This document shows positions 7,483 to 51,800 of a DNA stretch of 64,000 bases, one piece after another. Position 1 is the stretch's first letter. Every line of letters starts with the position of its first letter. The notes below the pieces were generated by a model. That model saw only the letters and a list, made by a program, of their open reading frames with translations, made no database searches and was not told the origin of the DNA. This DNA comes from a virus. The stretch is from positions 1-64,000 of IMG/VR virus record IMGVR_UViG_3300036790_000408; one strand, given 5' to 3'. Both the position numbers and the translations under genes were made by a program.

Positions 7483-9111
7483 ATGCCTGAGATATCATCA
7501 CTAAACCTAGGGGAAGTCATCCCATATACTACGAACAATTTACCCTTGTTCTCACCCATGAGCGCGATCCAGATCACCGGCAGCGGCGATCCACTGGTCG
7601 CCACCTTCACCATGGATGGCAACGCCAACGTCGCTAATGGGCCTGGACTAAGCATCATCACAACCCCAGTCCCACCGCTAACTCTCACCAAAGCCGAATA
7701 CACGACGCCTGCCGAGTCCGCAACGGCAGTGCAGGCAGCCCTGCGGCAGATCGAAATCGCGCCACTCCAGCCGGGCGGAGGAACTGATCTCAAGTACGGC
7801 TACCAGGGCGATATCACGATGTACATCACAGTGACCGACGTCGTCACCAACCAAGCGGTCACCGTCGCCATTAACGACATGGAGGATCCGCCACCCTCAG
7901 ATCCCCATACCACGGTCGCGGCCGGACAGAGCTACATCGTACCGCTCGGCATCGATACGGCGGGTGTACAGGTCACTGGCTACGTGACCAATAATGGCAC
8001 GCTGAACAGCGCAACGATCAACTCCGGTGGCGTGCTGAGTAATGCCGGCACCCTGATCGGCACCGTAGTCGGTTCCGGCGGCCTGCTGACCGAGCAATGG
8101 GCATCACTCGATTACGGCACGATCATCGAAGCCGGAGGTCAGGAGCAAATCTATAACGGCGGCGCGGGAGGCGGATCGCATAACGCAGTTATCCATGGCA
8201 CCCAGTCGATCAATGGCGCGTATACCTATAATCCGGAGGTGTACTCCGGCGGTCAATTGCTGGTAAGTGGCGGCAACATCATCGAAACTTACTATAATGC
8301 AGGCCAAAGTTACAGCGCGGTAATCAACAATGGGGGTTTGGAAGTCGTCTCCGGACAGGTCGGCGGCGATGCCGGATACTGGGGCATCGCCAATGGCACC
8401 ATCGTCATGAGTGGCGGCACGCTGCAAGTACACGCCGGAGGCGAGGCGATCAATGCCGCGGTCTACTCGGGCGGCACCATGGACAACGACTCGTTCTCGA
8501 TCGGCGCGTCACTCAATGGCACGATGAACGATAATGCCGGCGGCACGGCGACCGGGACCGCGATTGGTGGTGGCGGCGTCATGGACGTGTGGGGTGGCAG
8601 CGTGGCGCAGGCAACGGCCATCTCTTCGGCTGGCACAGAGGCGGTAGAGGGCGGCGGGAGCTCGACCGGCACCACGATCGGATCCGGAGGCTTCGAAGGC
8701 GTCTGGGGCGACAGCGCGGGCAACATCATCTACGCCGGCGGCAAGGAGGCAGTTTACAACGGCGGCGTCGATAGCGGCACCTGGATCGGCTCGGGAGGGA
8801 TGGAGTTCATCCGCGCCGGAGGTATCGAGAATGGCACCGTGACCTTTGGTGGCGGCAACGGAGCGTTGACCCTGCAAACCGCCGCCAGCGGCTATTGGAG
8901 CGCCGACATCGCCGGCTTTGCCAAAGGCAACTCGATCGATTTCTCGGATATAGGCTTCTCCAAAGGAGAGCAGGACATGTTCTCCGGCGGAGTGCTGTAT
9001 CTGGCGAGCGGCAGCGAGCATGCCGCTCTGCAATTTGCCGGCGGTTACACGACAGCCAGTTTCAAGCTTTCAAGCGATGGTGCTGGCGGGACGCTTGTAA
9101 CCCACACCTGA
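7483..9111 (+). CDS. AIDA/autotransporter-type strand-loop-strand repeat protein
   Basis: 542-aa protein after AAGGAG. Residues 1-145 form a beta domain (ALRQIEIAPLQPGGGTDLKY) like those at the N-termini of large secreted bacterial repeat proteins. Residues 150-470 are degenerate GG-containing repeats of about 20 residues (such as INSGGVLSNAG, AGGKEAVYNGG, SGGMEFIRAGG) of the autotransporter passenger type, which fold as a beta-solenoid. The end, GFAKGNSIDF and SDGAGGTLVT, is the usual cap of such proteins. There is no signal peptide or membrane barrel. It has its own terminator, so it may be a moron gene coding for a surface or virion adhesin; this is inference. Confidence 0.7.
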   Translation: MPEISSLNLGEVIPYTTNNLPLFSPMSAIQITGSGDPLVATFTMDGNANVANGPGLSIITTPVPPLTLTKAEYTTPAESATAVQAALRQIEIAPLQPGGGTDLKYGYQGDITMYITVTDVVTNQAVTVAINDMEDPPPSDPHTTVAAGQSYIVPLGIDTAGVQVTGYVTNNGTLNSATINSGGVLSNAGTLIGTVVGSGGLLTEQWASLDYGTIIEAGGQEQIYNGGAGGGSHNAVIHGTQSINGAYTYNPEVYSGGQLLVSGGNIIETYYNAGQSYSAVINNGGLEVVSGQVGGDAGYWGIANGTIVMSGGTLQVHAGGEAINAAVYSGGTMDNDSFSIGASLNGTMNDNAGGTATGTAIGGGGVMDVWGGSVAQATAISSAGTEAVEGGGSSTGTTIGSGGFEGVWGDSAGNIIYAGGKEAVYNGGVDSGTWIGSGGMEFIRAGGIENGTVTFGGGNGALTLQTAASGYWSADIAGFAKGNSIDFSDIGFSKGEQDMFSGGVLYLASGSEHAALQFAGGYTTASFKLSSDGAGGTLVTHT

Positions 9112-10591: not shown

Positions 10592-13048
10592 TTGGACGCT
10601 ATGCCATGGGGTGGCATTGGGACTGACCGATTACCACCGTCGAGCACGCAAGCCGAGCAAGCCCTCCTGGGAGCGCTCTTACGCAACAATAAAGTCGCTG
10701 AAAAGGTAGCGTTTCTACGCCCACATCACTTCGTTGATCCAATCAATGGAAAGACGTTCGAAGAGGCTATGAAGCTGATCGGCCAGCAACGCGTGGTCGA
10801 TACAGTAATCATGTCAACAATCCTGGAGCCAAGCCCAGCCTACGATCCGTTCGGCGGCGTGGTGCCGTACCTGAACGGCCTGACCGTGGCCATGATCGGC
10901 ATCATCAACGCCAACGATTACGCCAAAGTCGTGCGCGACATGTGGCTGCGCCGGCAGTTGATCGACATCGGCACCGATCTGGTCAACAGCTCATTCGGCA
11001 CCGAGAGCGCTAGCGATCCACTGGCGCACGCCCGGCGCATCATCAATGAGATCGAGGAGATATCCGCCGGCGCCGAGTCACTGACCGGCAACATGGTCAG
11101 CCTGGAAGTCGCGGTCGATGCGGCACTCCAGGCGATGGAGGATGCCAAGAAGTTCGGCGCGTCAGGGATCTCGACCGGCTTTCGCTGCATCGACGCGCGG
11201 CTGGGCGGTCTCGAGGACGGATTGGTGTACGCGATCGGAGGCCGACCAGGTTCGGGCAAAGAGCAGCCAATCGATACACCCACACTAACCCCGACCGGGT
11301 GGGTTCCGCTTGGCACCTTGGCGCCAGGAGATATGGTCATCGGTCAAAATGGTAAACCAACACGAGTCGTGGCGGTCCATCCGCAGGGGATAAAGCAGGC
11401 TTATCGAGTGATATTCCGCGACCTCACTTCCACAGAATGTGGCGCAAATCACCTGTGGCATGTCGCCTCGGCCGGTGGGCGCTCGCGCCTGAAGTTCAAA
11501 ACACGAACCACGCTGGAAATGCTGGATGGAGGGATGTGCTGGGCAAAGAAGGATGGACGTAAGGGCGCGAAGTGGCGAATACCACTCGTTGAGCCGATAG
11601 CCTTTCGCGAGGTCACATTGCCCATCGATCCCTACATCCTGGGTGTCTTGATCGGCGATGGAACTACGGGCGGGCGTGATCTGCGGTTTTCTAACCCAGA
11701 TATAGATTGGGATATACGCGAACGCGTAAGGCACCGGCTCCCTGTCGGCATTACAATGCGGGAGAACCGCTCGAATTCATGTCCATATTACAGCCTAAGA
11801 GGGCCAGGAAGACGAACCTATAGGGCGCTTATTGCGGCGATGGGCCTCAATGTAAAAAGCGGCAAAAAATTCATCCCCAACGAATATAAGTTCGGGTCCA
11901 TCTCGCAGCGAACCGACCTGTTGCATGGACTAATGGATACGGATGGATCGTGCGGCGATCGAAACCGAGTGAGCTTTTCCACAACATCTCAAATGCTAGC
12001 CGTGGATATCTGCGATCTCGTGCGTTCATTGGGAGGAGTTGCAATCATCCGCCAATCCGACCGATCAGCCGACGATAAAGGAATTGAATACAGCGTAAAT
12101 GTGAAGATGGCGACATGTCCGTTTTCCAACATCAGAAAATCCTCTAGGTGGCGGAACCCACCCCCTCCATCCAAGTATATCCACGACATTGTACCTTCCA
12201 GACTGGTCGAGCAGCGGTGCATCACCGTCGCAGCCGAGGACGGCCTGTACGTGACGAACGACTACATCATCACGCACAATAGCTCGCTCGGCCACCAGAT
12301 AGCGCTGCATGCGGCTGGGAACGGTGTGGGCGTCCTGGAGCTCTCCCTGGAGATGTCTCGCACCCAGTTAGGCCGTAGGGCGCTCTCCATCGCCTCTGGG
12401 GTGCCCCTAAAGCGCATGAAGGAGGGCACCGCAACCATCGAGGATGGTGTGGCTCTGCATCACGCGCGGGGGAAGCTCGCGAAGCTGCCACTGACCATCG
12501 ATGACGCCATGGGCCAAACGCGCTTGCAGATCGCCGCCAAGATCCGCGCGGCGGCCCGCAAGAAAGGGCGCGTGGGGCTGGTGCTGGTGGATCATATCAA
12601 CCTGATCAAGGCTGAGGACGGCGACCACGGACCCACCCATTCGACCGGCGAGAACAGCCACATGATGCTGCAGATCGCCAAGGACAACAACGTCGTGGTG
12701 ATCGAGCTGGTGCAGCTCAACCGCGGTCCGGAGAGCCGGGAGGACAAGCGTCCCAATCTCGGCGACCTGAGGCAGAGCGGCGACATCGAGCAAGACGCCT
12801 ATGCGGTCGGATTTGCCTACCGGGATGAACTCTACATCGGCGGCGACCCAATCCAGCAAGAGGGCGAGAACTTCGACAAATTTCAGGCCCGCCAAGAGTC
12901 GCGCGGCCAACGAAAGCTAAAAAGCGCAGGGAAAGCTGAGCTGATCTGGGGAAAGGTTCGAGATGGGGAAACCGGCACCGACCATTTGTTTTTCGATGGA
13001 AAAACAACATCGTTCAGCGAACCAGTGGCCGACGATGCGCCGCTGTAG
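10592..13048 (+). CDS. dnaB: DnaB-type replicative helicase interrupted by an intein
   Basis: 818-aa precursor, about 478 aa after splicing. Residues 1-170 are the N-terminal DnaB domain (PPSSTQAEQALLGALL). The RecA-like domain has its Walker A split: GGRPGSGK ends at residue 223, the intein fills 224-563, and SSLGHQIALH resumes at 564. Walker B is GLVLVDHINLI, and a late motif QLNRGPESREDKR followed by DLRQSGDIEQDA is typical of DnaB. The start is a TTG at 10592, with GGGAGG 8 nt upstream; the ATG at 10601 is too far away (17 nt). DnaB unwinds the fork as a hexamer; the DUF1376 gene follows 12 nt later. Splicing is required to restore ATP binding. Confidence 0.95.
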   Translation: MDAMPWGGIGTDRLPPSSTQAEQALLGALLRNNKVAEKVAFLRPHHFVDPINGKTFEEAMKLIGQQRVVDTVIMSTILEPSPAYDPFGGVVPYLNGLTVAMIGIINANDYAKVVRDMWLRRQLIDIGTDLVNSSFGTESASDPLAHARRIINEIEEISAGAESLTGNMVSLEVAVDAALQAMEDAKKFGASGISTGFRCIDARLGGLEDGLVYAIGGRPGSGKEQPIDTPTLTPTGWVPLGTLAPGDMVIGQNGKPTRVVAVHPQGIKQAYRVIFRDLTSTECGANHLWHVASAGGRSRLKFKTRTTLEMLDGGMCWAKKDGRKGAKWRIPLVEPIAFREVTLPIDPYILGVLIGDGTTGGRDLRFSNPDIDWDIRERVRHRLPVGITMRENRSNSCPYYSLRGPGRRTYRALIAAMGLNVKSGKKFIPNEYKFGSISQRTDLLHGLMDTDGSCGDRNRVSFSTTSQMLAVDICDLVRSLGGVAIIRQSDRSADDKGIEYSVNVKMATCPFSNIRKSSRWRNPPPPSKYIHDIVPSRLVEQRCITVAAEDGLYVTNDYIITHNSSLGHQIALHAAGNGVGVLELSLEMSRTQLGRRALSIASGVPLKRMKEGTATIEDGVALHHARGKLAKLPLTIDDAMGQTRLQIAAKIRAAARKKGRVGLVLVDHINLIKAEDGDHGPTHSTGENSHMMLQIAKDNNVVVIELVQLNRGPESREDKRPNLGDLRQSGDIEQDAYAVGFAYRDELYIGGDPIQQEGENFDKFQARQESRGQRKLKSAGKAELIWGKVRDGETGTDHLFFDGKTTSFSEPVADDAPL
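11261..12280 (+). mobile_element. class 3-type intein with LAGLIDADG homing endonuclease, in DnaB Walker A
   Basis: Encodes residues 224-563 (340 aa) of the DnaB precursor. The first residue is Glu (EQPIDTPTLTPTGW), not the Cys, Ser or Ala nucleophile of class 1/2 inteins. The Trp-Cys-Thr set that marks class 3 inteins is present: Trp in block B (ANHLWHV), Cys in block F (RCITV) and Thr in block G (IITHN). It ends in HN followed by Ser as +1 residue. Two dodecapeptide endonuclease motifs, ILGVLIGDG (about residue 348) and LLHGLMDTDG (about 443), each keep an acidic residue, so homing activity is plausible. The insertion point between GSGK and S is a known DnaB intein site. Confidence 0.92.
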
Positions 13049-13894: not shown

Positions 13895-13942
13895 GAAATA
13901 AAAGCATTGCGGCAAGGGTCCATGATGGTATTAATCGGCCGC

Positions 13943-14154
13943 GACGGACCAAACACGGATCCTCCCCCAACAGACCATCGTCCGTCATGGACTACCCCAA
14001 TGAGGCCGGGCCTCTCTCTGACCGAGATCCACCCTCGCGCCGCCCGGCCTCATATATTTCTTGACACCGCTACCGACCATGAGCATCATCCCAAACGACA
14101 AGCAGTTTCCTCTTTATAAAACGAGTCCCATGCTGATATCGGTTTCTGCTTGTC
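13943..14154 (+). ncRNA. structured noncoding element, small relative of the 16.5-kb hairpin chain
   Basis: This 288-nt gap between genes has no convincing reading frame but holds stacked hairpins. GACGGAC (13943-13949) pairs with GTCCGTC (13980-13986) around exactly 30 nt. A 12-bp stem (14000-14011 with 14042-14053, core TGAGGCCGGGC) also encloses exactly 30 nt. GACAAGCAG (14097-14105) pairs with CTGCTTGTC (14146-14154). GTCC-GTCAT-GGAC (13980-13992) is an alternative small hairpin with the same GTCAT loop as at 16533-16549. The 14000 hairpin matches the one at 17130 in stem (C-G replacing U-A) and in the loop bases GACC.A.ATCC. Strand assumed from flanking genes. Confidence 0.55.
14061..14089 (+). 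promoter_or_regulatory. possible sigma-70-type promoter
   Basis: TTGACA at 14061-14066, a 17-nt spacer and CATCAT (four of six consensus bases) at 14084-14089, about 95 nt before the zinc-finger gene. It would transcribe the last hairpin of the structured element and the two following genes. Confidence 0.35.
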
Positions 14155-14182
14155 ACAGATCGGAACCGACCAGGGAGTTACC

Positions 14183-15118
14183 ATGATTTGTCCACACTGC
14201 GGCCAAACGCAAGCTGAGACGGCTATGGGGAAGGCGCTCAACAGCGCTGGCTTCCACACCCCTGCGCAGCGTCTTGAAATATTGATGACCGAGGTGTTCG
14301 GCAAGTACCCTGGACTTGATGGACCTGACCACGAGAAACGTTACAAATACATAATGGAAGGTCAGGTCGAGGCTGAGTGGTTCACCAACCTCCTGATGAA
14401 AAATCACCAACCTGGTGTCATGTCGGGATGGGTTAGCGCATTGCTCCGCGCACAGGGGGAGAAGCGGGCGCAGGCAGCGAAAGCTGCTTCCCAAGAGCGG
14501 CCTTCTGTCGCAGCGACCAAGCCAATACCCCGCCCAGTCGTGGCGGGTGTCACCAATCAGGATCGGCGGGCCACATCACTCTCGAAACCCATCACTCTTA
14601 CGCCCGTCGGTCCTGATCCCAAAGCGAAGATCCAGGCGGCTAAGCCCGTTACCCCACCCGTGAAGCAATCTCCGAAGATGACGATGACATTCGCGCAATC
14701 TCATCGTCGGTACAAAGAGATCAATGACAAGCACAAGGCGGCAGAGGATGCTCGATTGAGCGCCGAGATCGATCGGAAGAACAAGATCGAAATCAACAAG
14801 AGAGAGCAGCGCGAAGCTGCTATGTTCAGACATCGTCTTGGCCTTCGCAGGACAGACGATGGTAAGCTCATTCTCAATTCGAGTATGTCTGTGTGCTTCT
14901 CGTTCAGTTCCAATTTAAAACAGAGATCACAAACCGATTGGGAAGACGGCGAGGCGATAAAATTGCTACTGGATGCCGCGCATGGATGGAATGATCAAGA
15001 TGGCAACCTGCTCAAGGATGTCATTGATGGTACGGAACAAATGGATGCGGCTGTAAAAGAGGCCCGGGAACACTACAAAAGCCGCAACATCTATCGTGAG
15101 ATTATGGAAGATGCGTAG
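14183..15118 (+). CDS. zinc-binding protein with coiled-coil tail, 311 aa
   Basis: Start at ATG 14183 (MICPHCGQTQAETAMGKAL), with GGGAG 5 nt upstream; the frame is open earlier but without a better start. A CxxC pair at the N-terminus suggests a zinc knuckle. The middle is a basic, proline-rich linker, followed by a charged helix (EINKREQREAAMFRHRL). No catalytic motif. It lies between two structured noncoding elements, so an RNA- or DNA-binding role is possible but unproven. Confidence 0.6.
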   Translation: MICPHCGQTQAETAMGKALNSAGFHTPAQRLEILMTEVFGKYPGLDGPDHEKRYKYIMEGQVEAEWFTNLLMKNHQPGVMSGWVSALLRAQGEKRAQAAKAASQERPSVAATKPIPRPVVAGVTNQDRRATSLSKPITLTPVGPDPKAKIQAAKPVTPPVKQSPKMTMTFAQSHRRYKEINDKHKAAEDARLSAEIDRKNKIEINKREQREAAMFRHRLGLRRTDDGKLILNSSMSVCFSFSSNLKQRSQTDWEDGEAIKLLLDAAHGWNDQDGNLLKDVIDGTEQMDAAVKEAREHYKSRNIYREIMEDA

Positions 15119-16469
15119 GGCGAAACAGATCGGTTTGGTGGAAACGCCAGACCGGCAGCAGGATGCCAGCGGCACCGCGAGCACCATTTTCCTCTCGCAA
15201 CCTGCTGCAAATAATAACGATACCCGCACAATCAAAGCGATCCTGGATGATTTGGTTGAGTTGCAGAAGTACCGCAAGTTCTCGATCAAGGGTCAGCAGA
15301 TGTGCGACCGACGCACGGAGGCGCTGATTGCCAGTAGCCTTGGTTATGACCTTCAGCAGAAGGATCAGGACCAAAAGGCCAGGAAGGCCATATTCCTCCG
15401 CGCCGCGGAAATACGGGAGTCGATCGAGGGCGCGGATAGAGCCGTTATCAAGGCTAATGACAAGTGGCGCAAATTGGTTTTGAAAATCAAGGAGATTACC
15501 GAAATAAAGCACCACAAGGCGCTGCTCAAATGGGACGCGGCCATGGAGAAGCGGCGTCCCGGCGATAATAAGCCGACACCTCCAGAGCCAGTTCTCGCCT
15601 ACCCAGACCCTCCTGTCCGTGAGGTTGTAGCGCCACCGACGCTACCGGATGACGTCGTGACATCAAGACCCGAAAAAATGATCAGGTCGATACTGGCCAG
15701 CGCCACCGCTCGATCTGTCTACGACAATGACAGAAGCGATACCGAAACGGCAATGATTAAGTTGGCCGGCTCTCTGCCGATCTACCCGTGGGCAAGTGAG
15801 ATTAGCGGCTTGGGAGAATTGGGTCTTTCGATCCTTGTAGCAGAAGCGGCTGGTTTCGACCTCGATGAAGAGGGAGTCCCACACCGTAGGGCCATCTCAG
15901 ACTACAGAACAGTCTCGGGGCTATGGAAGCGGATGTGCGTCGCGGTCATGCCGGATGGCACCAGACAGCGCAAGAGCCGGAATGCGGCGGACGCCCTGGA
16001 GCAGAAATACAAGCCGGCCAGGAGGTCTGAGGGCTGGGTGGTGACCGAGTCACTGCTCAAGAAGCAGGTATGCGGTGAGGCGAGGGCCTGTCGCGAGGCC
16101 CTGTTGGCGGACCCGAAAGCGTCGACGGCCCTCGCGAAGCGAGGGATCGATGTGGCAGAGATCAAGACCGCCAAGGCGCTGCATGATCTGACGGCAGAGT
16201 TCGGCATCGAGGCTCGATCCTATGCCCTTGGCCACTACGGCGATGTTTACCTGCGGCGCAAGGCACACACCGCGATCCGGGTCGAACTCACGAGAGAGTT
16301 CCCCGACGTAGTTAATGGGCACTTCAACCCGGAGAAATGGACGCCATCGCGGTGTGACCGGGATGCGAAGCGTGTTATGTTCAAGGATCTTTTGAAGGAC
16401 ATGTGGGTCGAATGGCGCCGGGTAGATCGAGAGGCGACCACCACCCCACTTCAGGATGCCGCAGATTGA
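15111..16469 (+). CDS. hypothetical protein with IS110-like HhH region, about 452 aa
   Basis: Starts at ATG 15111 (MRRAKQIGLV) or GTG 15096, overlapping the upstream gene by 8 or 23 nt. The N-terminal half is helical and charged. The region SGLGELGLSILVAEAAGFDL followed by YRTVSGLWKRMCVAVM resembles the helix-hairpin-helix segment at the C-terminus of IS110-type transposases. No DEDD nuclease domain is seen, so it is not a transposase. Homologues I recall occur in alphaproteobacterial prophages as hypothetical proteins. The gene directly precedes the large hairpin-chain element; a nucleic-acid-binding function is inference. Confidence 0.6.
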   Translation: MRRAKQIGLVETPDRQQDASGTASTIFLSQPAANNNDTRTIKAILDDLVELQKYRKFSIKGQQMCDRRTEALIASSLGYDLQQKDQDQKARKAIFLRAAEIRESIEGADRAVIKANDKWRKLVLKIKEITEIKHHKALLKWDAAMEKRRPGDNKPTPPEPVLAYPDPPVREVVAPPTLPDDVVTSRPEKMIRSILASATARSVYDNDRSDTETAMIKLAGSLPIYPWASEISGLGELGLSILVAEAAGFDLDEEGVPHRRAISDYRTVSGLWKRMCVAVMPDGTRQRKSRNAADALEQKYKPARRSEGWVVTESLLKKQVCGEARACREALLADPKASTALAKRGIDVAEIKTAKALHDLTAEFGIEARSYALGHYGDVYLRRKAHTAIRVELTREFPDVVNGHFNPEKWTPSRCDRDAKRVMFKDLLKDMWVEWRRVDREATTTPLQDAAD

Positions 16470-16532
16470 TGCGGCGCAGCGATGGCCCTGAACCCCACGA
16501 TACCCGTGCGTCGCTCGCCATCGCTGCAATAT

Positions 16533-16642
16533 TCCGACGTCATGTCGGACGAGGCTGGGTCAGATTGGGGTCGAACTCCAGGTGTCCCGCGCCCAGCCTC
16601 ACTCATTCAGTTCGGGTCCAGAGATGGGTCCGGCGACGGAGG
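16533..16642 (+). repeat. structural module copy 1 within the hairpin chain
   Basis: Order: short hairpin TCCGAC-GTCAT-GTCGGA (16533-16549); long hairpin with GAGGCTGGG/CCCAGCCTC (16551-16600); linker ending ATTCAG; hairpin CGGGTCC-AGAGAT-GGGTCCG (16613-16632); then the 5' arm of another long hairpin. The same order and similar sequence recur at 17116-17219. Confidence 0.6.
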
Positions 16643-16812
16643 AACATACACGAGTCGATACCCCAGCAAGACACCTCCTTTCCGTCGCAAACATTCGAAC
16701 GTGTCCGGGACCAGGGGCGTTGCGATATCCTTTCGAGCGGCCGTCTTGGACGCTATGCGGTGGGACTTTTCGTATCTCGTGAACCATACCTGGAGCGTCC
16801 CACCGCAACCTA

Positions 16813-16926
16813 TCCGGCTATGCCGGAGCGCGAGGCTTGCCAGAGAGAGAGCGACAACCAGTGTCATTCAAGCGAGCCTCGCGCACAAAGATCGGACCGG
16901 CCGCAAGGTCTGTCCGTGGGGAGGCA
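16813..16926 (+). repeat. diverged structural module copy 2 within the hairpin chain
   Basis: Same order as the other copies but less sequence identity: TCCGGC-TAT-GCCGGA (16813-16827), directly followed by the long GCGCGAGGCT/AGCCTCGCGC hairpin (16828-16884), then a small hairpin with CGGACC pairing GGTCTG across GGCCGCAA, then the GTGGGGAG stem at 16916. Confidence 0.45.
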
Positions 16927-17115
16927 GAAGTCGATCGAAATCCGAAGACATGCCGTCTCCCCACCCAATCGGAGTTGGAGCCACCGCTCAATCGATACCC
17001 ACTGCAACTGCGCTTCAGTCTCCGACCTTATCACGAGACGCCGCTGGGCAACTGGCGGCTGCGGCGGTGCCACGGAGTCGGCGACACCCAGGACGCCAGC
17101 GCCCGCCGCAAACCA

Positions 17116-17219
17116 TCCGGGAAGCCGGAGAGGCTGGGCCATGGAGGGACCAATATCCCCGGTAATAGCGCCCAGCCTCATTTATTCAGATCGGGCGCAG
17201 AGATGCGTCCGGCAGCGAG
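17116..17219 (+). repeat. structural module copy 3 within the hairpin chain
   Basis: TCCGG-GAAG-CCGGA (17116-17129), long hairpin GAGGCTGGGC/GCCCAGCCTC (17130-17179), linker ATTTATTCAG, then CGGGCGC-AGAGAT-GCGTCCG (17192-17211). Against copy 1, the AGAGAT loop is unchanged while two stem positions change on both sides (U-G to C-G and C-G to G-C), keeping the pairing. Confidence 0.6.
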
Positions 17220-17356
17220 AGATCCAAAAGATGCACGAGACCCCATGCAATTTCGGTTTTCCTCGCTGCGAACATCCGGTGGAGACATCGGAGCGATGAT
17301 TGGAGCAGTTAGCCTGCGAAACCCACATTCATCCCTATCCAATCATCGCAAAACTT

Positions 17357-17422
17357 GCGCGGCCTGCCGGGCGCACCTAGCATTTTAAAGCAGGGGTGGC
17401 CGGTTCGACTCCGGCGCCGCGC
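17357..17422 (+). tRNA. tRNA-like fold, degenerate or remnant
   Basis: GCGCGGC (17357-17363) pairs perfectly with GCCGCGC (17416-17422) as a 7-bp acceptor-like stem. Just inside it, GCCGG-TTCGACT-CCGGC (17399-17415) is a textbook T arm with a 7-nt loop, and the sequence continues GAACCA. The 35 nt between are too short for normal D and anticodon arms and give no clean anticodon stem, so this is either a broken tRNA, a tRNA-like end of the adjoining structured RNA, or a copy of a host tRNA 3' end. Confidence 0.4.
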
Positions 17423-17535
17423 GAACCATGGAGGGTGACATGCCTCACGAGTTCTGAATTACCTCGGGTCCGCGGACCTCCGCAGTGAACTGGGCTTACT
17501 GGATCCAACTTCACATTGATGCGGAGAATGCAAGA

Positions 17536-28757: not shown

Positions 28758-31472
28758 CTACAGAGTCTTAACCTGGAACGGTATGCTCCAGTTTCCTACG
28801 CGGCCTGACGCAAATGTCACCGAGCATCGCAAGGTGTACATGACCGGGATATACAGCGGAGTGAACTCTCCGACGGTAATCGAAACGAGATAACCAAGAG
28901 TGGACGGCATCGATCCTGGAACGACAAAGCTGTCGATGAAGGTTGGACCTATGAAATTCAGGTCAGGTAACCCAGGTGTTTCGGCTATCCCGGTAATTTC
29001 AGCCCATACGATTGCGTCGTTGGCATAGCCACGAACTGACCAATCGAAGGTGAATGTCTGCTGATCGGACGGATCAAACGGAGAAAAGAATTCCGGTTCC
29101 GCCCGGTAAATCTGGTTATCGAACACCCCGTCCTCCTCACGCGGTAGCACAATGCGCCGGATCATCGGCGGCAGCGTCGATATATCACCTGGAGGGGGCA
29201 GGCGCACGACGCGAGTGCGTTGCGACAATGGGATGTAGGTGTGAAACCACGTGGTGATCCTCGTCACCGTCGATGACAACACAACGAACGGGGCCTTCTG
29301 CCGATTGCGGACGGCATTGATGACCTGCCCCTGCGCCCACCCGAGCACTACGCCGCCACTGGCGATGATGATCTGCGGGAAAGAGCCCTGGGCGTAGCCG
29401 GCAACGATCCCGACCGAGCGGGAGAAGCGTGTGGACTCTGGTGACGCGGCACCAAAGGACCGGGCTGACTGCCTGGCCAACCTTCCGGATTGAGATCCGG
29501 AAGCCCCAAAGGCACGAAACATATTCCGGATGACCTGCAAGGACTGCGTCGAGGCGGTGTGAACCTGATGTCCGATCGAGCGTTGCAGTCTTGGCGCTTG
29601 TGGGTCGGTGGCGCTGGCCGCGATGTTGCGCGACAGCATTTTGGCTATACCTGAGGCTTGCTGGGATCCTCGGCCGAGGGTTTTCGAGATGCCGCGCAAC
29701 ATCCCGGTCGATTGAATGTTGACCGCGGTCCGGACGGCCGTCATCGCACGCTTCACACCGAATGACTGCGCGTCGACAGCGTTCAGGCCCTTACTAGGCA
29801 CCTTGTGCAGACTAATGGTCTCTGGGCTAGAGGTTGATACGGTCTGGAGTTTGGCTCTCCGAGCGACGATACTGGCACTCTCAGCACTGGCCGCACTGTA
29901 AGACCTGACCAGCGATAGCAGCCGGGAATAGGATGCGGACTGTGCCGACGCCGCACCGTGAGTTCGGACCAGCAGCAAGTTCCTGGCAAACGATCCGACC
30001 TGGGAAGAAGCCACGGAGGCGGATTTGAAGATTGCCAGCACCCGAGCGGCCGACTGGGTTGACGCGGCTTGTGCTCGATAGGATGTGGCGAGCGTCCGGC
30101 TGATGGAGAAAGCTTCGGTACTGGTCGAGCCGATCGGGAACTCCACCTGCTTGATCAGACCAGATGATGCGGCATTTGATGCGGCCAGGGCTAGTTGGTT
30201 GACTACGCCGGACGAGTAGGTGATCCGGATCTGACCGATGGCGCCGGCGCCGCCCGTGCTCGGACCTAATCCAGAATAGAAGACCGCGCCACCACCGCCG
30301 CCACCAGGTGCGCCGCCCGCGCCCGCGACATCGCCTGGAGCACCCACTGTGATCAGCGATCCGCCACCGCCACCGCCTGATGTGGCCGAGGTGCCGGCAT
30401 TACCCGGGCTGGTAGCGCTAACAGAGCCGCCGGCGCCGCCCGTCGTGGCGTCACCCTGCCCACCCGCGCCCGTCGAGGATGCATTGCCGTTACCGTCGGG
30501 CCCAGCCGACCCACCCCCACCAGCACCCGTGGAAGCATAAGCCGCGCCCGCGCCGCCTGTGTTCTTAGTGCCGGTCCCAATACCCGCCACGCCACCCGCG
30601 CCACCCGACGCCCCATTCGACCGCGAGCCGGCCGGGGCTGACATATAGCCGGGGGTGGATTTCCAAGCCGATGCCGAGGTGCCAGCCTCGATCTGCGCGC
30701 CGGCCACCCGAATGGTCAGGTTGATGGCCTTGCCGGCGGTCCAGTTGAGCTGAAGGCCGGAAGATATCTTGAGCCCACTGCTGGCCGTCGTGGCGTGACC
30801 GCTGGTTTGCGCTAGCGTGCCGGTCAGCGTGACGGTGTCGGTGATGATCGCGGCCAGGAAGCCGCTGGCCGACGTCCAGTCATCGGTAATGACCTGAACG
30901 CTGGTGATATTGGTGGTCGAGCCACCGACTAGGGCAAGATAGACGCTGACATTGTACGCGGTGGACGCTGAGCAGACCAAGAGCCCATCGAAAGAGAAGT
31001 CGGCGTGCGTGCTGGACGTGGTGCCGGACCACTGCACATCGACAAACGGCAACCCCGTAGTGGCGTCGACCCCAACATTGACGATCGTGCCGGTCGGCGT
31101 GCCGGTCGAGGTCCAGTTGGTCGGCAACACACCGACTGACGCGCCCTGCTGCAGCGAGTTCGTGAGGATGTTGAGGTTGTTGTTCGACCAAGTCGAATTG
31201 CCACCGGAAACGCCATCACCGCCGGTGCCGCCAGCCCCTCCGGCCCCCACGACGTAAGGGACACCATTCGTAATGTCGTTGGTCGTGAGCGTGTACGTCG
31301 ACGAGGTGTACGCACCGCCGCCACCACCTGAACCGAATGCAGAGCCGGAACTGCGCGCGCCACCGCCGCCTGCAGCGCCCCACCCCTCAATGGTGACGGT
31401 GCTGTTGGCCGCCAAGCCACTCGGCACAGTCCAGGTGCCGGAACCGCTGGTGTTGAGCAGTACGGTGGTCAT
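28758..31472 (-). CDS. glycine-rich tail fibre protein with adaptor-type C-terminal domain
   Basis: 904 aa. Residues 1-60 are a beta domain (GTWTVPSGLAANSTVTIEGW) leading into glycine-rich loops (GGGGGAYTSS) like those of phage fibre tips. A carbohydrate-binding-like domain follows, then a second Gly-rich stretch (about 330-400), then Ser/Ala/Gln repeats of roughly 35 residues (SAQSASYSRLLSLVRSYSAA). The last 130 residues (FFSPFDPSDQQTFTFDW to GNWSIPFQV) match the phage fibre-tail adaptor pattern. That domain recurs at the end of the 32311-34335 protein. Confidence 0.75.
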   Translation of the reverse strand: MTTVLLNTSGSGTWTVPSGLAANSTVTIEGWGAAGGGGARSSGSAFGSGGGGGAYTSSTYTLTTNDITNGVPYVVGAGGAGGTGGDGVSGGNSTWSNNNLNILTNSLQQGASVGVLPTNWTSTGTPTGTIVNVGVDATTGLPFVDVQWSGTTSSTHADFSFDGLLVCSASTAYNVSVYLALVGGSTTNITSVQVITDDWTSASGFLAAIITDTVTLTGTLAQTSGHATTASSGLKISSGLQLNWTAGKAINLTIRVAGAQIEAGTSASAWKSTPGYMSAPAGSRSNGASGGAGGVAGIGTGTKNTGGAGAAYASTGAGGGGSAGPDGNGNASSTGAGGQGDATTGGAGGSVSATSPGNAGTSATSGGGGGGSLITVGAPGDVAGAGGAPGGGGGGAVFYSGLGPSTGGAGAIGQIRITYSSGVVNQLALAASNAASSGLIKQVEFPIGSTSTEAFSISRTLATSYRAQAASTQSAARVLAIFKSASVASSQVGSFARNLLLVRTHGAASAQSASYSRLLSLVRSYSAASAESASIVARRAKLQTVSTSSPETISLHKVPSKGLNAVDAQSFGVKRAMTAVRTAVNIQSTGMLRGISKTLGRGSQQASGIAKMLSRNIAASATDPQAPRLQRSIGHQVHTASTQSLQVIRNMFRAFGASGSQSGRLARQSARSFGAASPESTRFSRSVGIVAGYAQGSFPQIIIASGGVVLGWAQGQVINAVRNRQKAPFVVLSSTVTRITTWFHTYIPLSQRTRVVRLPPPGDISTLPPMIRRIVLPREEDGVFDNQIYRAEPEFFSPFDPSDQQTFTFDWSVRGYANDAIVWAEITGIAETPGLPDLNFIGPTFIDSFVVPGSMPSTLGYLVSITVGEFTPLYIPVMYTLRCSVTFASGRVGNWSIPFQVKTL

Positions 31473-45835: not shown

Positions 45836-48800
45836 CTAATTCGGAGTCGGGAAGGCTACGCCGGCTTGCCCGGCAAGTGGATTGTTGCCGCTATTCGACG
45901 CAAACTCGGGCCACTCGGTAGCAAACGCCTTCAGCATCTCAATCCCCGCACTCGAGCCCCAGAACGACATCCACAAGCACTGACCGTTGGCAATGCCATT
46001 GTAGGCCTCGCTTTGAAACCAAGTGATGCGCTTGCGCAGATAAGCTGCCGCTTCTGGGATATTGGGGAAATCCGTGGCGGCAGGATATCCTGGAGCACCG
46101 TAGATATTAGTGCCTGTGTTCTTGCCGGCGCCATTGACACTGAGGTCATCACCCTCTGTCGCGTATCCCTCCGGAACGCCCCACATGCAACCATTCTGCA
46201 GCGCCCAGACCATACTCTCGAATGTGCCCCAGCCGCCCGACCAAGGTAGTCTGGTGGTTGGACTGGAGTTGTAAGAGGTCTGCTGAGACGAGCCGCCGCC
46301 ACCCCTGAAATCAGCCGCGTAGTACTCCGAACCGATATCGGCGAAGAAGGCCTGCACGCTCGCTGCGGTGCCGGTGGTGGAGAAACTCCCATTGAATGGA
46401 GCGGATGCAGCAAGAGCATCGTATCCATGCTTCAGATTGGTGGTGTTCGCGGCATATTTGTTGCCGAAATACAAATCCGGTCCATGCACATCGACCAGTT
46501 TTCCCCAGCCGTCAGCCGATTGGTATGAGGCTGTGTCAGGATAGAGTAGGCGCGGGTCGAACCATCCGCTCTGCAGGAGGCACGGCCCCCAGCATTTCCA
46601 TATGGTCATGCCGTTGGCTAGAGCGAACTGTTGCACGACATGAGCAAATCGACGCCATGCCTTAATGTACGCATCAGCAAACGCAGCTTGTCCGGTCGGG
46701 AGGCCGGAGATCGTTGTGGCAAAGCTTTGTTCTGACTCGCCTCCGTAATAGCCCCAGGCCGCACCGCCATTGGATACAGCCGCCGCTCCGTACTGCGATG
46801 ATCCAGCGCTTTGCCCACCCGGAGTGGTGGGGAGATTGTCCTCCCAACTGATACGAAGAACGATCGTCTTGTAACCGGCCGTCAAAAACGTCTGCATGTA
46901 ACTCTGGATCACAGAGTCAACGGAACCGGACGCGATCGAGGCGAAAGTCATCACGCCATCGGTGGTAGTCAGCGGAAGTCCGGCGATGGGGATGAGGTTG
47001 AACCCCAGCCCCGTCTTGTTGAAGGCCGGATAATTGTTCCAAGTCTGCAAATATCCGTTTATGCCGTAATTATATGCCCCTGAACTAGCAAAAGATCCAG
47101 TATACAGAAGCATATTTGTCGGCTTACAAAATGCCGACGTAAAGTTGCCAATGGCAACCGTGGCTAAATCCTGAGTGCCTTGGGTCTCGTCCCCTGGATA
47201 GGTCAACTCCATCCCCCAGCCGAGATAAGGCAGGCCGGCTACCGAGGTGGCGCCGCCAGTCGCGGGCGCGGCATTGACGGTGTACGCGACACCGAGCGAA
47301 GCGATGCCCGTGCCGCTATCCTGCATGTACGCGGTGTAACTGCCGGCGGCGGGGGTTGGAATGCCGGTGACCACCGCAATAAGATTGCTGCCGGACAGCG
47401 TCACATTGTAGCCGGCCGATTGAGCCGAGACAAAAGCCTTTGTGGCACCGACAGAAATCTGCACATCGGCCGCGCTAGTCCAAGGTAGCGTTCCCGTGCC
47501 TGTGAGGCTGAACGTCTGGCCATTCGTAGGATCTGGAATAGCGCTCACCGTGATCACGTCGGTCGGTGTGACCGTCGTCGTGGTCGAGGTGAACAAATCC
47601 AATCCAGTCATATCGACGTAGCTGTTGCCGGGATAGCGCGCGGCGGTCTGGGTGGATATCGAGAACGGCGACTGCGCCGTCCAGAGCCAGAGGATGTTCT
47701 GCAGGCCCTTTGATGTGGTCAGATAGTTCCAGGCATACTGCCACAGCGCGACGTACTGCGCGGCAGTCAAAAACTGGGTGCCCCACCAGAAGTCGCCGGC
47801 GTTCGATCGATAGAACGGTCGCAGGATGACCACGACGCCGGCCGTCTGGAGCGCCTGCAGGCCGGTGGCCACTTGGCTGAGCATGTTGACCAGGGCGGTG
47901 TTTGTCGCCGTCCCTGAAGTCAGCAGGTCGGCCACGGTAAGGGCCGAGAGATCAGTGCACACTCCCCCGGTCGTGGGGTTCGGCATCGACAGGCTTAAGG
48001 TGCAGATCCCACCCGCGTCCCAGTAGGTAATCGCGTTGGCATTGAACGTCGTCACCGCGGCGCCGGTGCCGGTCGGCGCCCAGTAATCGCCACCAATCAG
48101 CCCAAGCCATTGCCCATCGGCCGATTGGATCGCGCTGATAGGCGTCAACGGCCCAGTGCCGATGTACTCACCGGAGATCGAGCCGATGCCCTGCACCGAG
48201 CTTTGGATCTTGGCGAGCATGGTCTGGGCCGGCGTGTTGCTCGGCGGCGGCGTGATGGTTGACTGGGTCGTGGCCGTAACCGCCGGGGCGGACGGCGCCG
48301 AGTCGCCGACGCTATTGAACGCGAGCACCTGGAAATTGTACGCGGTACCCTGCGTCAGGCCGGTAATGACCTGGCTCGTACCCGGCGTCGTCGAGCCGTA
48401 GTTTGTATAGGCCGAGCTGGCTGCCGTCTTAAATTGAACCTGATAGCCAGTGACGGTGGGACCGCTGCTCGGCGGCTGCCAGGAGAGAGCGATCGAGTTG
48501 GTCGTGATCGCACCGACGCTCAGGCCAGTGGGTACTCCAGGCGACTGCGGCGTGCCTGGGACAGTGTACGTGACCAGAGCAGAGTCCGCTCCGTCTCCGG
48601 CTCCATTGGCGGCATAGACGACGTAGTCGTACGTGATCCCCTGATTGATCCCGGTCAGGGATATCGAGGTGCTCGTGGTGGTGCCGACGACAGAGTACTC
48701 CGCCGCGCCGGTCGGCGACTGCATGACGACGTAGGTGTACGGGCCGGAACCAGTGGCAGGTGGGGTCCAGCTCAGCCCGACGGCGGTGCTCGGAGCGGTC

Positions 48801-51800
48801 GCGGCTGCCGTATACGTACCGCCGCCATTACCCGCCGCGGCAACCACCAGCACAGGCACTTGCTGCGAAGCAATAGTGACAGTGGAAGACTGGACGTCGA
48901 TGACCTGCACCGGATGCGAGATCGCCGCACCAAGGATCCAACCGATTGTCGCGATCGTGCCGGTGCTGTCCCACGTGATACTGCCGCCGGTCGGTGGCGT
49001 GTCGGTGAACGGTGAGAATGTGATGCCGTTATAAGTAATGTTGCCGGTGGTATCGTACGGCGTGAAGTAGAGCGTGCTGATATTCGGCTTATAGTTGAAG
49101 GCGAACTCAACAAAGAACTCCTGCCCAGCCGTTTGATTGGGCAGCGACGACGGCATGGTGATGGACTGCGCGCCGGTGGCGACTGTCAGGCCAGTGACCT
49201 GACCCGGCGCCGTGACCGTTGGCGTCGAACCATGCCACGGCGGGAAAGTGCTCGGCACACCAGAAAATGAGAATGCTCCAGAGCCGGCGTTCAGCACCGC
49301 GACACCACCAGACTCACCGGTCGAGAAGCAGATCGAGAGCGGTCCGGAGACGGTGATCGGAATACCGCCGGTGCCAGTCGCCGGATTGGCTGTGGCGCTG
49401 TCGTTCCACGCATTCGACCCATAGGCCGCGCGCATCGTCGGGCTGGTGAACCATACCAGCTTGGCATCATCGTCCACGCAACATGTCACCACGGCGCCAG
49501 CCGCGTCGGCTGCCGGGGCGTTGCCGGATGGCGTCAGGACCGCGGCGTTGTTCTGCCGGATCGTGGTCGGCACAATCGCCGCCTGGGTGACGATGGTGCC
49601 GCCACCGGTTCCCGCGCCGGCGTCTGGGTTGGCTACGAGCTCCGGAAAGGCTGTGGCGAATGTGTTGAGCATCGCCTGCCCTTGACCCTCCCAGAAGGAG
49701 AACTGCAGGAAGACACCGTTGGCAATACCGTTCTTGGTCTTGTCCTGGAACCAATCGATCCGCGAGCGTGTGTAGGCGGCCAGGGTAAGTTCGTTGGCCC
49801 AGTTCGCCGCGCCACTAAACGACAGGCCGTTGTTGAGATTGCCTTTCGGATTAGTGCCGCCATCGTACTGGTCAAGACCACCGAACTCACAGAACATCAC
49901 GGCGAGTCCGTTCTGGAGGGCGAATATGAACGTTTCGTACATCGACATGCCACCCTGATATCCGATCGGGGTGGTCAGTGGATTGAGTGGAGCCTTGTAG
50001 CCGTCCGTCCAGTCAGCCCAGTACCATTTGGAACCTTCATCGGCGCCGAATTGCGCCTGCGTTGCTCCGGTCGAGGTGACCGTGCCGGCGGTGAATGGCT
50101 GCTGGTTGATGTACCCAGAACGAAGATTGGTGGTGTCGCCCCAGAAATTTCCGAAATAGAAATCCGGCCCAAGACAATCGACCAGTTTGCCATGCCCATC
50201 GGTCTGCACGCTATCGGGGTACGAGTCCCGCCAGTCGATGCTGTCGCTGGAGATGATGGTCGGGCCCCAGACCATGGTCAAATCCATGCCGAGGGACGCC
50301 GCATGCTGCTTCAGGTCATAGGCGACCGCTCTCCATGCGGCAATAAAAGCGTTGGCATAAGCAGTCCCGCCGCCGTAGAATGTCCACGGACAATAAGAAC
50401 CAGCCGGGTAATTACTTCCAGGAGAAGCGTCTTGACCAGCAGGAGTTGTGGGATAATTGTCCTCCCAACAAAGTCTTACTGCTATCTTCTTGAAACCTGC
50501 ATTATACCATAGAGTAAGTATGTTATTAAAGTAGGCGGTATTCTGATGAGCCGCTGCACTGGCAAAGGTGACCGTGCCATCAGTCGTGGTCAGTGGTAGG
50601 CCATAGATCGGGATGCATGGCTTGGTCAGGGTGCCGGGAATGGCGGCAGTCGTGCCATTCCAATACGGGTCAGCCTTCCAGCCATTGATATATGACTGGG
50701 TGTAATAGGTGATGTTGCCCTGGGTATCGAAGGCACCCGGATAAACGAGGCAGGTGCGCGGCGTGCAGAACTGCTGGCAGAACCAGATCCAGGTCGGATC
50801 CGGGGCAGTTCCATTACCCGGATAGCAGAGATCGACGCCGACACCCCAGAGCGGCAGACCCAGGACGGATGCGGTCGCAACCGAGGCCGGGACGTTCGCT
50901 GGATAGTAGCCGAGTCCATTGGCGTCGTTGCCGAGCTCGGTAGTGTTGAGCGAGAAGCTGCTGTTGACCAAGCCGATCGCGACGCTGTCCGACACCCCGC
51001 TGAGGGTGACTTCGAACGCAGCCTTGCCGCCACTGATCTGCTGCGCGCTCAGCACGCCCTGGCGGCTCGCGCCAACTGTCGATGAGCCGCCGGCGGTGGC
51101 TGTCAGGTTGCTGTTGGTGATGGCAATGGTCGAACTTGCGCCGGTCGGCTGCCATCCCGTTACCGTTGGAGCGGTCGCTGCGGTGGCCGTGGTTAGGATG
51201 GTCGAGAACGCACCGTCGCCAGAAGCATTGAATGCTTGCACCTGGAAGTCGTAGGTGGTGCCGCTCGACAGCCCGGTGATCTGAGCGTTGCTCACGGTCA
51301 CGCTCGGCCCGGCCGTAAAGGTATTCATCCCGGTCGGCGAGTACTGGGTGTTGTATCCTGTAGGCGCGGCTCCGCCACTGGGTGGCAGCCAGACCAGATT
51401 GACCGCGGTGGTGGTGGCGCCCGCCGACACTACGCCGGTCGGCACACCCACGGCGGTGACGATCGTTTGCGTCGTGCTAACGGTCAGGATCGCCGAGTCG
51501 GGGCCCTGGCCAACCGAATTGATGGCATAGACCTCGATATCGTACGAGGTGCCAGGCAAGAGCCCAGAGATCGTGGCTTCGAGGCCTGACTGTGCCGGCA
51601 GACTGGTCCAACTGGAGGCCGCAATACTGAACGAGATAGTCGCTTTGGCCACCCCATCCGTCACCAGCAGAGTATAGTTTCCGGCCGCGAGTCCAGAATG
51701 GATAAAGCTGAACGAGGTCAGTGTGACTTGCGCGCCAGAGGGCATGCTCTGGGCTGGGCCGCCGTTGTCCTCGTAGACCAGCGTTGGGATCGCGGTGTAA

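What the first reader, a model, noticed from the sequence alone, without database searches (positions are those of the whole stretch)
16476..17422. A 950-nt chain of regular stem-loops: candidate giant structured phage RNA
Seen: at least ten long stem-loops follow one another, mostly with 8-13 bp stems. Loop size is exactly 30 nt in four of them (16487-16516, 16561-16590, 16767-16796, 17140-17169) and 31 nt in two more, with short hairpins between. Several stems use G-U pairs, as in RNA. Known: GOLLD and ROOL RNAs are several hundred nt long, highly structured, phage-borne and often near tRNA genes. Inference: this may be a new family or a distant relative of those, ending in a tRNA-like fold.
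Basis: partly seen in the sequence, partly recalled or inferred. Interest (0 to 1): 0.95.

Follow-up and report, generated by a model that had tools for sequence, protein, structure and literature searches.

The report
Phage guide-RNA hairpin array (TIGR-Tas)
The chain of stem-loops is not one giant RNA but a phage-borne array of short two-part guide RNAs lying beside the gene of the protein that should use them (a TIGR-Tas system, first described in 2025), and comparing relatives shows the guides being swapped while the hairpins that frame them stay the same.

Summary
In detail: about twelve hairpins, mostly with 30-31 nt loops, folding 10 SD better than shuffled sequence. The GOLLD/ROOL reading is not supported. 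The hairpins are units of a TIGR stem-loop array: each loop reads CCA-N9-CG-NNNN-CC(A)-N9-CG, i.e. two 9-nt spacers between box C/D motifs. The array starts a few nt after a tas gene (15096-16469) whose product belongs to the TIGR-Tas/Nop family (HMM; AlphaFold model whose only credible PDB matches are TasH-tigRNA complexes). Four further units lie upstream, one inside a neighbouring gene. A covariance model built without the window places 11 of its 12 hits in the 64-kb window in this locus, all on one strand. About 75 distinct relatives, mostly viral contigs, show strong stem covariation. No nuclease domain: a TasA. TIGR stem-loop arrays were described by Faure et al. 2025 (PMC12045711), so the kind is known. 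Three points I did not find in that paper's main text: (1) a companion gene just upstream of tas in 60 of 65 testable loci; (2) guide units nested in reading frames; (3) orthologous units that keep stems and boxes while their spacers are at chance identity, once with only spacer A replaced. Targets remain unknown.

The parts
16476..17349 (+). TIGR stem-loop array: 12 guide-RNA hairpins starting at 16476, 16551, 16634, 16701, 16756, 16828, 16916, 16968, 17057, 17130, 17213, 17293; loop plan CCA-N9-CG-NNNN-CC(A)-N9-CG; some units have degenerate boxes
   Evidence: Hairpins, loops and motif. Independent CM from relatives scores 10 of the 12 above background; 16634 and 17213 rest on hairpin and motif only.
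15096..16469 (+). tasA-type gene: coiled coil + Nop domain, no nuclease domain; residues 1-42 predicted disordered, so the true start may be downstream
   Evidence: NCBIfam TIGR_Tas_endo 59.4 bits, E 4.7e-16; AlphaFold pLDDT 86; Foldseek top hits TasH 9w02/9w03; hmmsearch 9mty_A E 2e-26
14150..15118 (+). companion gene directly upstream of tas (ORF; start codon uncertain), family of unknown function conserved at this position
   Evidence: Single-sequence phmmer to L019 upstream ORF E 5.5e-5; family in 60 of 65 non-redundant loci with >=1.2 kb upstream
14556..14617 (+). guide unit with 16-bp stem and 30-nt loop, nested in the linker-coding part of the companion ORF
   Evidence: Best CM hit of the window, 37.6 bits, E 2.2e-5
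15158..15205 (+). guide unit inside the 5' end of the tas ORF (disordered N-terminus)
   Evidence: CM 25.5 bits, E 0.0065 in 64 kb
14000..14053 (+). guide unit upstream of the companion gene
   Evidence: 12-bp stem, 30-nt loop; CM 23.2 bits
13941..13988 (+). guide unit upstream of the companion gene
   Evidence: CM 17.9 bits, E 0.24 in 64 kb, 0.015 in the 3.9-kb locus
16607..16634 (+). linker hairpin with GAGA (GNRA) loop after unit 2; duplicated at 17186-17213 with compensatory changes
   Evidence: 46-nt direct repeat 87% identical, spacing 579
17130..17213 (+). unit 10 plus linker hairpin, a duplicate of unit 2 (16551-16634): nearly identical stem arms, different spacers
17355..17428 (+). 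tRNA-like 3' element (7-bp acceptor-like stem, T-arm GCCGG-UUCGACU-CCGGC, then ..ACCA); role unknown
   Evidence: weak tRNA-Sec covariance match, 18.9 bits; sequence

Best explanation
The region is the guide array of a phage TIGR-TasA system of the stem-loop type. The locus is probably read as one + strand transcript (two upstream units, companion gene with a nested unit, tasA with a nested unit, then twelve units). The RNA folds into a chain of hairpins. A TasA dimer grips the two box C/box D sets of each loop (stem-side CCA/CG and the central CG-NNNN-CC(A) turn), protecting one hairpin while host RNases cut the linkers, which gives one dual-spacer guide RNA per unit. The RNP then binds about 18 bp of DNA, spacer A pairing with one strand and spacer B with the other. 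As this Tas lacks a nuclease domain it should act by binding, bending or blocking (of transcription, replication or a rival element) rather than cutting. Shown here: the array, its boxes, strand specificity, stem covariation, the Tas homology and fold, the companion gene, and spacer replacement between relatives. Inferred from Faure et al. 2025: processing, RNP formation and the targeting mode. Unknown: the targets and the companion's role.
For: Hairpin/loop geometry and motif. CM trained without the window: 11 of 12 hits at E <= 1 in 64 kb (both strands) fall at 13941-17178 on +, best E 2e-5; in the whole 134-kb genome all 8 hits lie at 14563-17108 or 14003-14050. Relatives: motif-only search gives 280 hits on the tas strand against 6 on the other, flanks pairing 76-91% per position over 8 bp against 46% with shuffled partners; 52-unit alignment 89.3% paired, 143 double changes against 48 shuffled, covariation score 0.74 against 0.18 shuffled and 0.14-0.20 slid. 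Tas: NCBIfam TIGR_Tas_endo, confident model, only credible PDB fold matches are TasH-tigRNA complexes, 9mty_A E 2e-26. A relative (L003) carries a classical dual-repeat TIGR array and a Tas above the NCBIfam cut-off. Faure et al. 2025 describe the same stem-loop plan (PMC12045711).
Against: P0001 scores below the curated NCBIfam cut-off (59.4 against 100), and Foldseek E-values are weak (0.12-0.14) although probability is 0.99-1.00. Some units have degenerate boxes (units 3, 5, 6, 12). No expression data. No target found in the phage's own genome. A transcription terminator after the array was not found, although TIGR arrays usually end with one.
Confidence: 0.95

Rival explanations
1. A single giant structured RNA (GOLLD/ROOL-like) that folds and assembles as a whole.
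For: Length ~950 nt, strong folding energy, phage origin, tRNA-like 3' end.
Against: No GOLLD/ROOL match at any threshold tried. The same unit recurs singly, in different numbers, upstream, downstream and inside genes of relatives. Each unit has two hypervariable 9-nt stretches at fixed places, which a scaffold RNA would not have.
Confidence: 0.02
2. Bridge RNA of an IS110-type recombinase: the hairpin loops are target/donor binding loops.
For: Tas proteins share the C-terminal RNA-binding domain with IS110 transposases; P0002 has a weak IS110 match (29 bits against cut-off 140); PHROGs calls the family 'transposase'.
Against: The window Tas gives no RuvC/DEDD Pfam match and the model shows only coiled coil + Nop. 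Many units rather than one two-loop RNA. No transposon ends seen.
Confidence: 0.02
3. Decayed array: the units with degenerate boxes and the nuclease-free Tas mean the system no longer functions.
For: Units 3, 5, 6 and 12 deviate in box C or D; two array units were not scored above background by the CM.
Against: Stems stay intact, including G-U pairs and 9-16 bp helices. The tas ORF is open and well predicted. Strand specificity is complete. TasA without nuclease is the commonest known form (Faure et al. 2025).
Confidence: 0.1
4. The 3' tRNA-like element marks an attP site in a tRNA gene and the array is a passenger cargo of a temperate phage.
For: T-arm and acceptor 3' half look like the end of a tRNA gene; related loci occur in bacterial contigs.
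Against: No tyrosine integrase in the 134-kb record; ARAGORN finds no tRNA-type gene in 21 related loci. Serine integrases were not searched.
Confidence: 0.12

Closest known systems
TIGR stem-loop arrays with TasA (Faure et al. 2025, PMC12045711, Fig. 7; Peromyscus gut contig)
   Same: Tandem hairpins with variable palindromic stems; [quoted passage not shown] next to a Tas/Nop protein; nuclease-free Tas; array in several sub-arrays.
   Different: Box D is CG rather than UG in most units; spacers are a fixed 9 nt with mostly 30-nt loops; some units nested in reading frames; a conserved companion gene; linker hairpins and a tRNA-like 3' end. Whether the paper's supplement already covers these could not be read.
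Dual-repeat TIGR arrays with TasR/TasH/TasA
   Same: 9-nt spacers A and B, CCA box C, short A-rich central turn; similar ~30-nt spacing between edges (L003).
   Different: Edge repeats replaced by long stems that differ from unit to unit.
IS110 bridge RNAs
   Same: Nop-like RNA-binding domain; guides in loops flanked by helices.
   Different: One two-loop RNA per element and an active DEDD recombinase; neither seen here.
Box C/D snoRNAs
   Same: Box C/box D bracketed dual guides bound by a Nop protein dimer.
   Different: No K-turn/L7Ae motif sought or seen; guides predicted for DNA.
GOLLD / ROOL
   Same: Long structured phage RNA.
   Different: No covariance-model match; modular guide array instead of a single fold.

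Membership tests
TIGR-Tas, stem-loop array type | Gene for a Nop-domain Tas protein next to the array | tested here: met
   NF052498 59.4 bits, E 4.7e-16, below curated cut-off 100; fold matches TasH 9w02/9w03; relative L003 Tas passes the cut-off at 160.7 bits
TIGR-Tas, stem-loop array type | Tandem hairpins whose stems vary but stay palindromic | tested here: met
TIGR-Tas, stem-loop array type | Two 8-12 nt spacers per loop bracketed by box C and box D | tested here: met
   CCA-N9-CG-N4-CCA-N9-CG; spacer positions near random, box positions near invariant in 36 relatives' units (the central CG and CC were part of the selection, the edge CA, central A and final C were not); window units
TIGR-Tas, stem-loop array type | RNA processed into single hairpin guides bound by Tas | not testable with these tools
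   needs RNA-seq or pull-down
TIGR-Tas, stem-loop array type | Tandem-spacer targeting of the two DNA strands | tested here: inconclusive
   No target with <=2 mismatches in own genome outside the array; exact IMG/VR hits for two units number 1 and 3, about chance
TasR / TasH (nuclease Tas) | N-terminal RuvC or HNH domain | tested here: not met
   no Pfam match; model is coiled coil + Nop only
GOLLD / ROOL | Match to the Rfam covariance model | tested here: not met
IS110 bridge RNA / recombinase | DEDD recombinase domain with a single two-loop bridge RNA | tested here: not met
   16 units instead of one RNA
tRNA / tmRNA (3' end element) | Canonical cloverleaf accepted by ARAGORN or Rfam | tested here: not met

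The most novel reading that the evidence does not exclude
Stem-loop TIGR arrays are diversified by in-place replacement of single 9-nt spacers inside fixed hairpin frames, and the companion gene upstream of tas is part of that machinery (or of guide maturation), i.e. a spacer-turnover system unlike CRISPR adaptation.
Probability: 0.2. Interest if true: 0.92.

Novelty: new variant of a known kind. Interest (0 to 1): 0.62.

Why it matters
TIGR-Tas was described in 2025. Its authors list the origin and turnover of spacers as an open enigma and say the systems generally have a single protein. Here a whole clade has a conserved second gene, and closely related loci show spacers swapped, in one case a single spacer, with stems and boxes kept. 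That gives a natural signature of spacer turnover and one isolated phage (Rhizobium phage RHph_X2_25 on Sinorhizobium americanum) in which guide expression, targets and the companion's role can be tested.

Tried and rejected
GOLLD/ROOL and every other Rfam family. DNA homologues in INPHARED by blastn: none. Conserved-hairpin pattern scan of IMG/VR: one hit in an RNA-phage-like contig, judged chance. Protein-coding reading of the array: long open frames without any family match. Self-targets in the 134-kb genome: best 3 mismatches apart from hits inside the array itself, chance level (three units were read one base out of register in that script). Targets among all related loci: no exact match for 336 units. 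IMG/VR target scans for two units: 1 and 3 hits, about chance. Reverse transcriptase (a DGR-like spacer diversifier): none in the record. Tyrosine integrase: none. Companion fold: AlphaFold pLDDT 85 (pTM 0.48), no PDB match. First companion comparison used a wrong reading frame for the window protein and was repeated correctly.

Full report
What was claimed and what is there. That is right: perfect stems of 8-13 bp close loops of 30 nt at 16476, 16551, 16756, 16974 and 17130, of 31 nt at 16701 and 16828, and of 29 and 33 nt at 16916 and 17293. The + strand folds 10 SD better than dinucleotide shuffles, the - strand 4.6 SD. Rfam has no family for it, even at E 10.

What the loops contain. Aligned on their middles, the loops share CG-NNNN-CC(A) in the centre, with about 9 variable bases on each side and CCA / CG at the edges. 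Nine exact CGANANCC motifs fall on the + strand within 830 nt. The plan is therefore CCA - spacer A (9 nt) - CG NNNN CC(A) - spacer B (9 nt) - CG, closed by a stem that differs from unit to unit.

The neighbour gene. The ORF that ends 6 nt before the array (15096-16469, 457 aa) has no Pfam match but matches NCBIfam TIGR_Tas_endo (59.4 bits, E 4.7e-16; below the curated cut-off of 100). Its AlphaFold model from a 52-sequence alignment is confident (pLDDT 86; residues 1-42 disordered). The only credible PDB fold matches are TasH-tigRNA complexes 9w02 and 9w03 (probability 0.99-1.00, TM-score on target 0.51-0.53, E 0.12-0.14), and the family profile finds 9mty_A at E 2e-26. No nuclease domain is present: it is a TasA.

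Comparison with the published system. Faure et al. 2025 (PMC12045711; [quoted passage not shown] TasA guides of that kind were shown to be processed into single hairpins. The window fits this description point by point. One relative (L003) has a classical dual-repeat array with UGAAGCCCA loop repeats and a Tas above the NCBIfam cut-off.

Independent test. From IMG/VR and GTDB I obtained loci with Tas relatives (92 sequences, 75 non-redundant). A search by boxes alone, without asking for a stem, gave 280 hits on the tas strand and 6 on the other; the bases flanking them pair at 76-91% per position over 8 bp, against 46% with shuffled partners. In a 52-unit alignment without the window, 89.3% of cells pair (57.5 shuffled), 143 cells are changed on both sides (48 shuffled) and the covariation score is 0.74 (0.18 shuffled, 0.14-0.20 slid). 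These units were chosen by motif, not by pairing, so the covariation is not a selection artefact. The covariance model built from them scored the window: 11 of 12 hits at E <= 1 in 64 kb on both strands lie at 13941-17178 on +, and all 8 hits in the whole 134-kb genome lie in this locus. It added units at 13941 and 15158 to those found by the hairpin scan at 14000 and 14556; 13 of the 16 units have E < 0.4 when the 3.9-kb locus is searched alone. Units 16634 and 17213 rest on hairpin and motif only.

Beyond the published picture: a companion gene. The ORF just upstream of tas (14150-15118) belongs to a protein family that recurs at this place. Single-sequence phmmer links it to the L019 upstream ORF (E 5.5e-5). 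Iterative profile search finds the family in 71 of 384 upstream ORFs and 2 of 3039 other ORFs; in 60 of 65 non-redundant loci with at least 1.2 kb upstream (counting two copies that lie downstream). It matches no Pfam or PHROGs family at a convincing level and its helical model resembles nothing in the PDB. It is not the ParB-like gene of Faure et al. (no ParB match; L009 has a ParB-like ORF as well, called from its sequence only). The main text of that paper says TIGR systems generally have one protein; the supplement could not be read.

Beyond the published picture: nested guides. The best-scoring unit of the window (14556-14617, 16-bp stem) lies inside the companion ORF, between its two halves, and another (15158-15205) in the 5' end of the tas ORF. 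In relatives 21 motif units fall in companion ORFs, many in one frame so that the ORF stays open, and 71 in the N-terminal region of tas ORFs, where the true start codon is uncertain.

Beyond the published picture: spacer replacement. Between syntenic loci, stems and boxes are kept and spacers are not. L011 (Shinella) against L049: sequence outside units 86% identical, stems 132/139, boxes 67/70, spacer A 20/63, spacer B 11/63 (chance 25%). Pairs L004-L006, L005-L006, L024-L031 and L047-L064 behave alike (stems 85-95%, spacers 11-44%), and L039-L047, L039-L064 and L053-L065 show the same trend with weaker stems, 65-75%. L023-L025 is mixed; in one of its units spacer A is 0/9 identical while spacer B is 9/9 and every other base of the unit matches. 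Two pairs of almost identical records have identical spacers (L031-L032, L072-L073), as expected for recent copies. Within the window, units 2 and 10 are a duplication with nearly identical stem arms and an 87% identical linker hairpin but different spacers. Gradual neutral drift would leave spacers about as similar as the linkers, so whole spacers appear to be replaced. Whether by a dedicated process or by recombination plus selection is open; no reverse transcriptase is in the record.

How it most likely works. The locus follows replication genes (a DnaB helicase and a DUF1376/primosomal protein) and precedes exonuclease and Erf genes. I infer one transcript, folding into hairpins, gripped by TasA dimers at the box C/D sets, trimmed in the linkers, and used to bind DNA of the form spacerA + revcomp(spacerB) with both strands read. 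Without a nuclease the effect should be binding, bending or blocking. Shown: array, protein family, covariation, companion, spacer replacement. Inferred from the paper: processing and targeting mode. Unknown: targets, the companion's role and that of the tRNA-like 3' end.

Verdict. The kind is known; the companion gene, nested units and spacer replacement make it a variant worth experimental work.

Noticed in passing
window 10592-13048: DnaB-like helicase ORF of 818 aa with an inserted LAGLIDADG homing-endonuclease stretch (intein-like) between its N- and C-terminal halves.
   Followed up: no
window 45836-54145 (-): 2769-aa ORF with at least four fn3 stretches and a glycosyl hydrolase 26 domain, probably a tail-associated host-binding or depolymerase protein.
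   Followed up: partly
window 31329-31427 (-): ARAGORN calls a tRNA-Ser (TGA) inside the 904-aa ORF 28758-31472; probably a false positive.
   Followed up: no
window 7483-9111: ORF with AIDA-type adhesin repeats.
   Followed up: no
window 17355-17428: tRNA-like 3' element with perfect T-arm and 7-bp acceptor-like stem; could be a processing signal or att remnant.
   Followed up: partly
L013 and L014 (Rhodoplanes elegans, two places on one contig): Two tas loci on one contig whose arrays use the classical UG box D, with units read through by the upstream ORF.
   Followed up: partly
L009 3538-5505: ParB-like ORF downstream of tas, as in the tasParB loci of Faure et al. 2025; called by eye from the sequence, not by a domain search.
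   Followed up: no
L002 104-124 (-): RNA-phage-like contig (replicase-like ORF by eye) with a 21-nt GAGA hairpin matching the window's linker-hairpin pattern; judged a chance match.
   Followed up: partly
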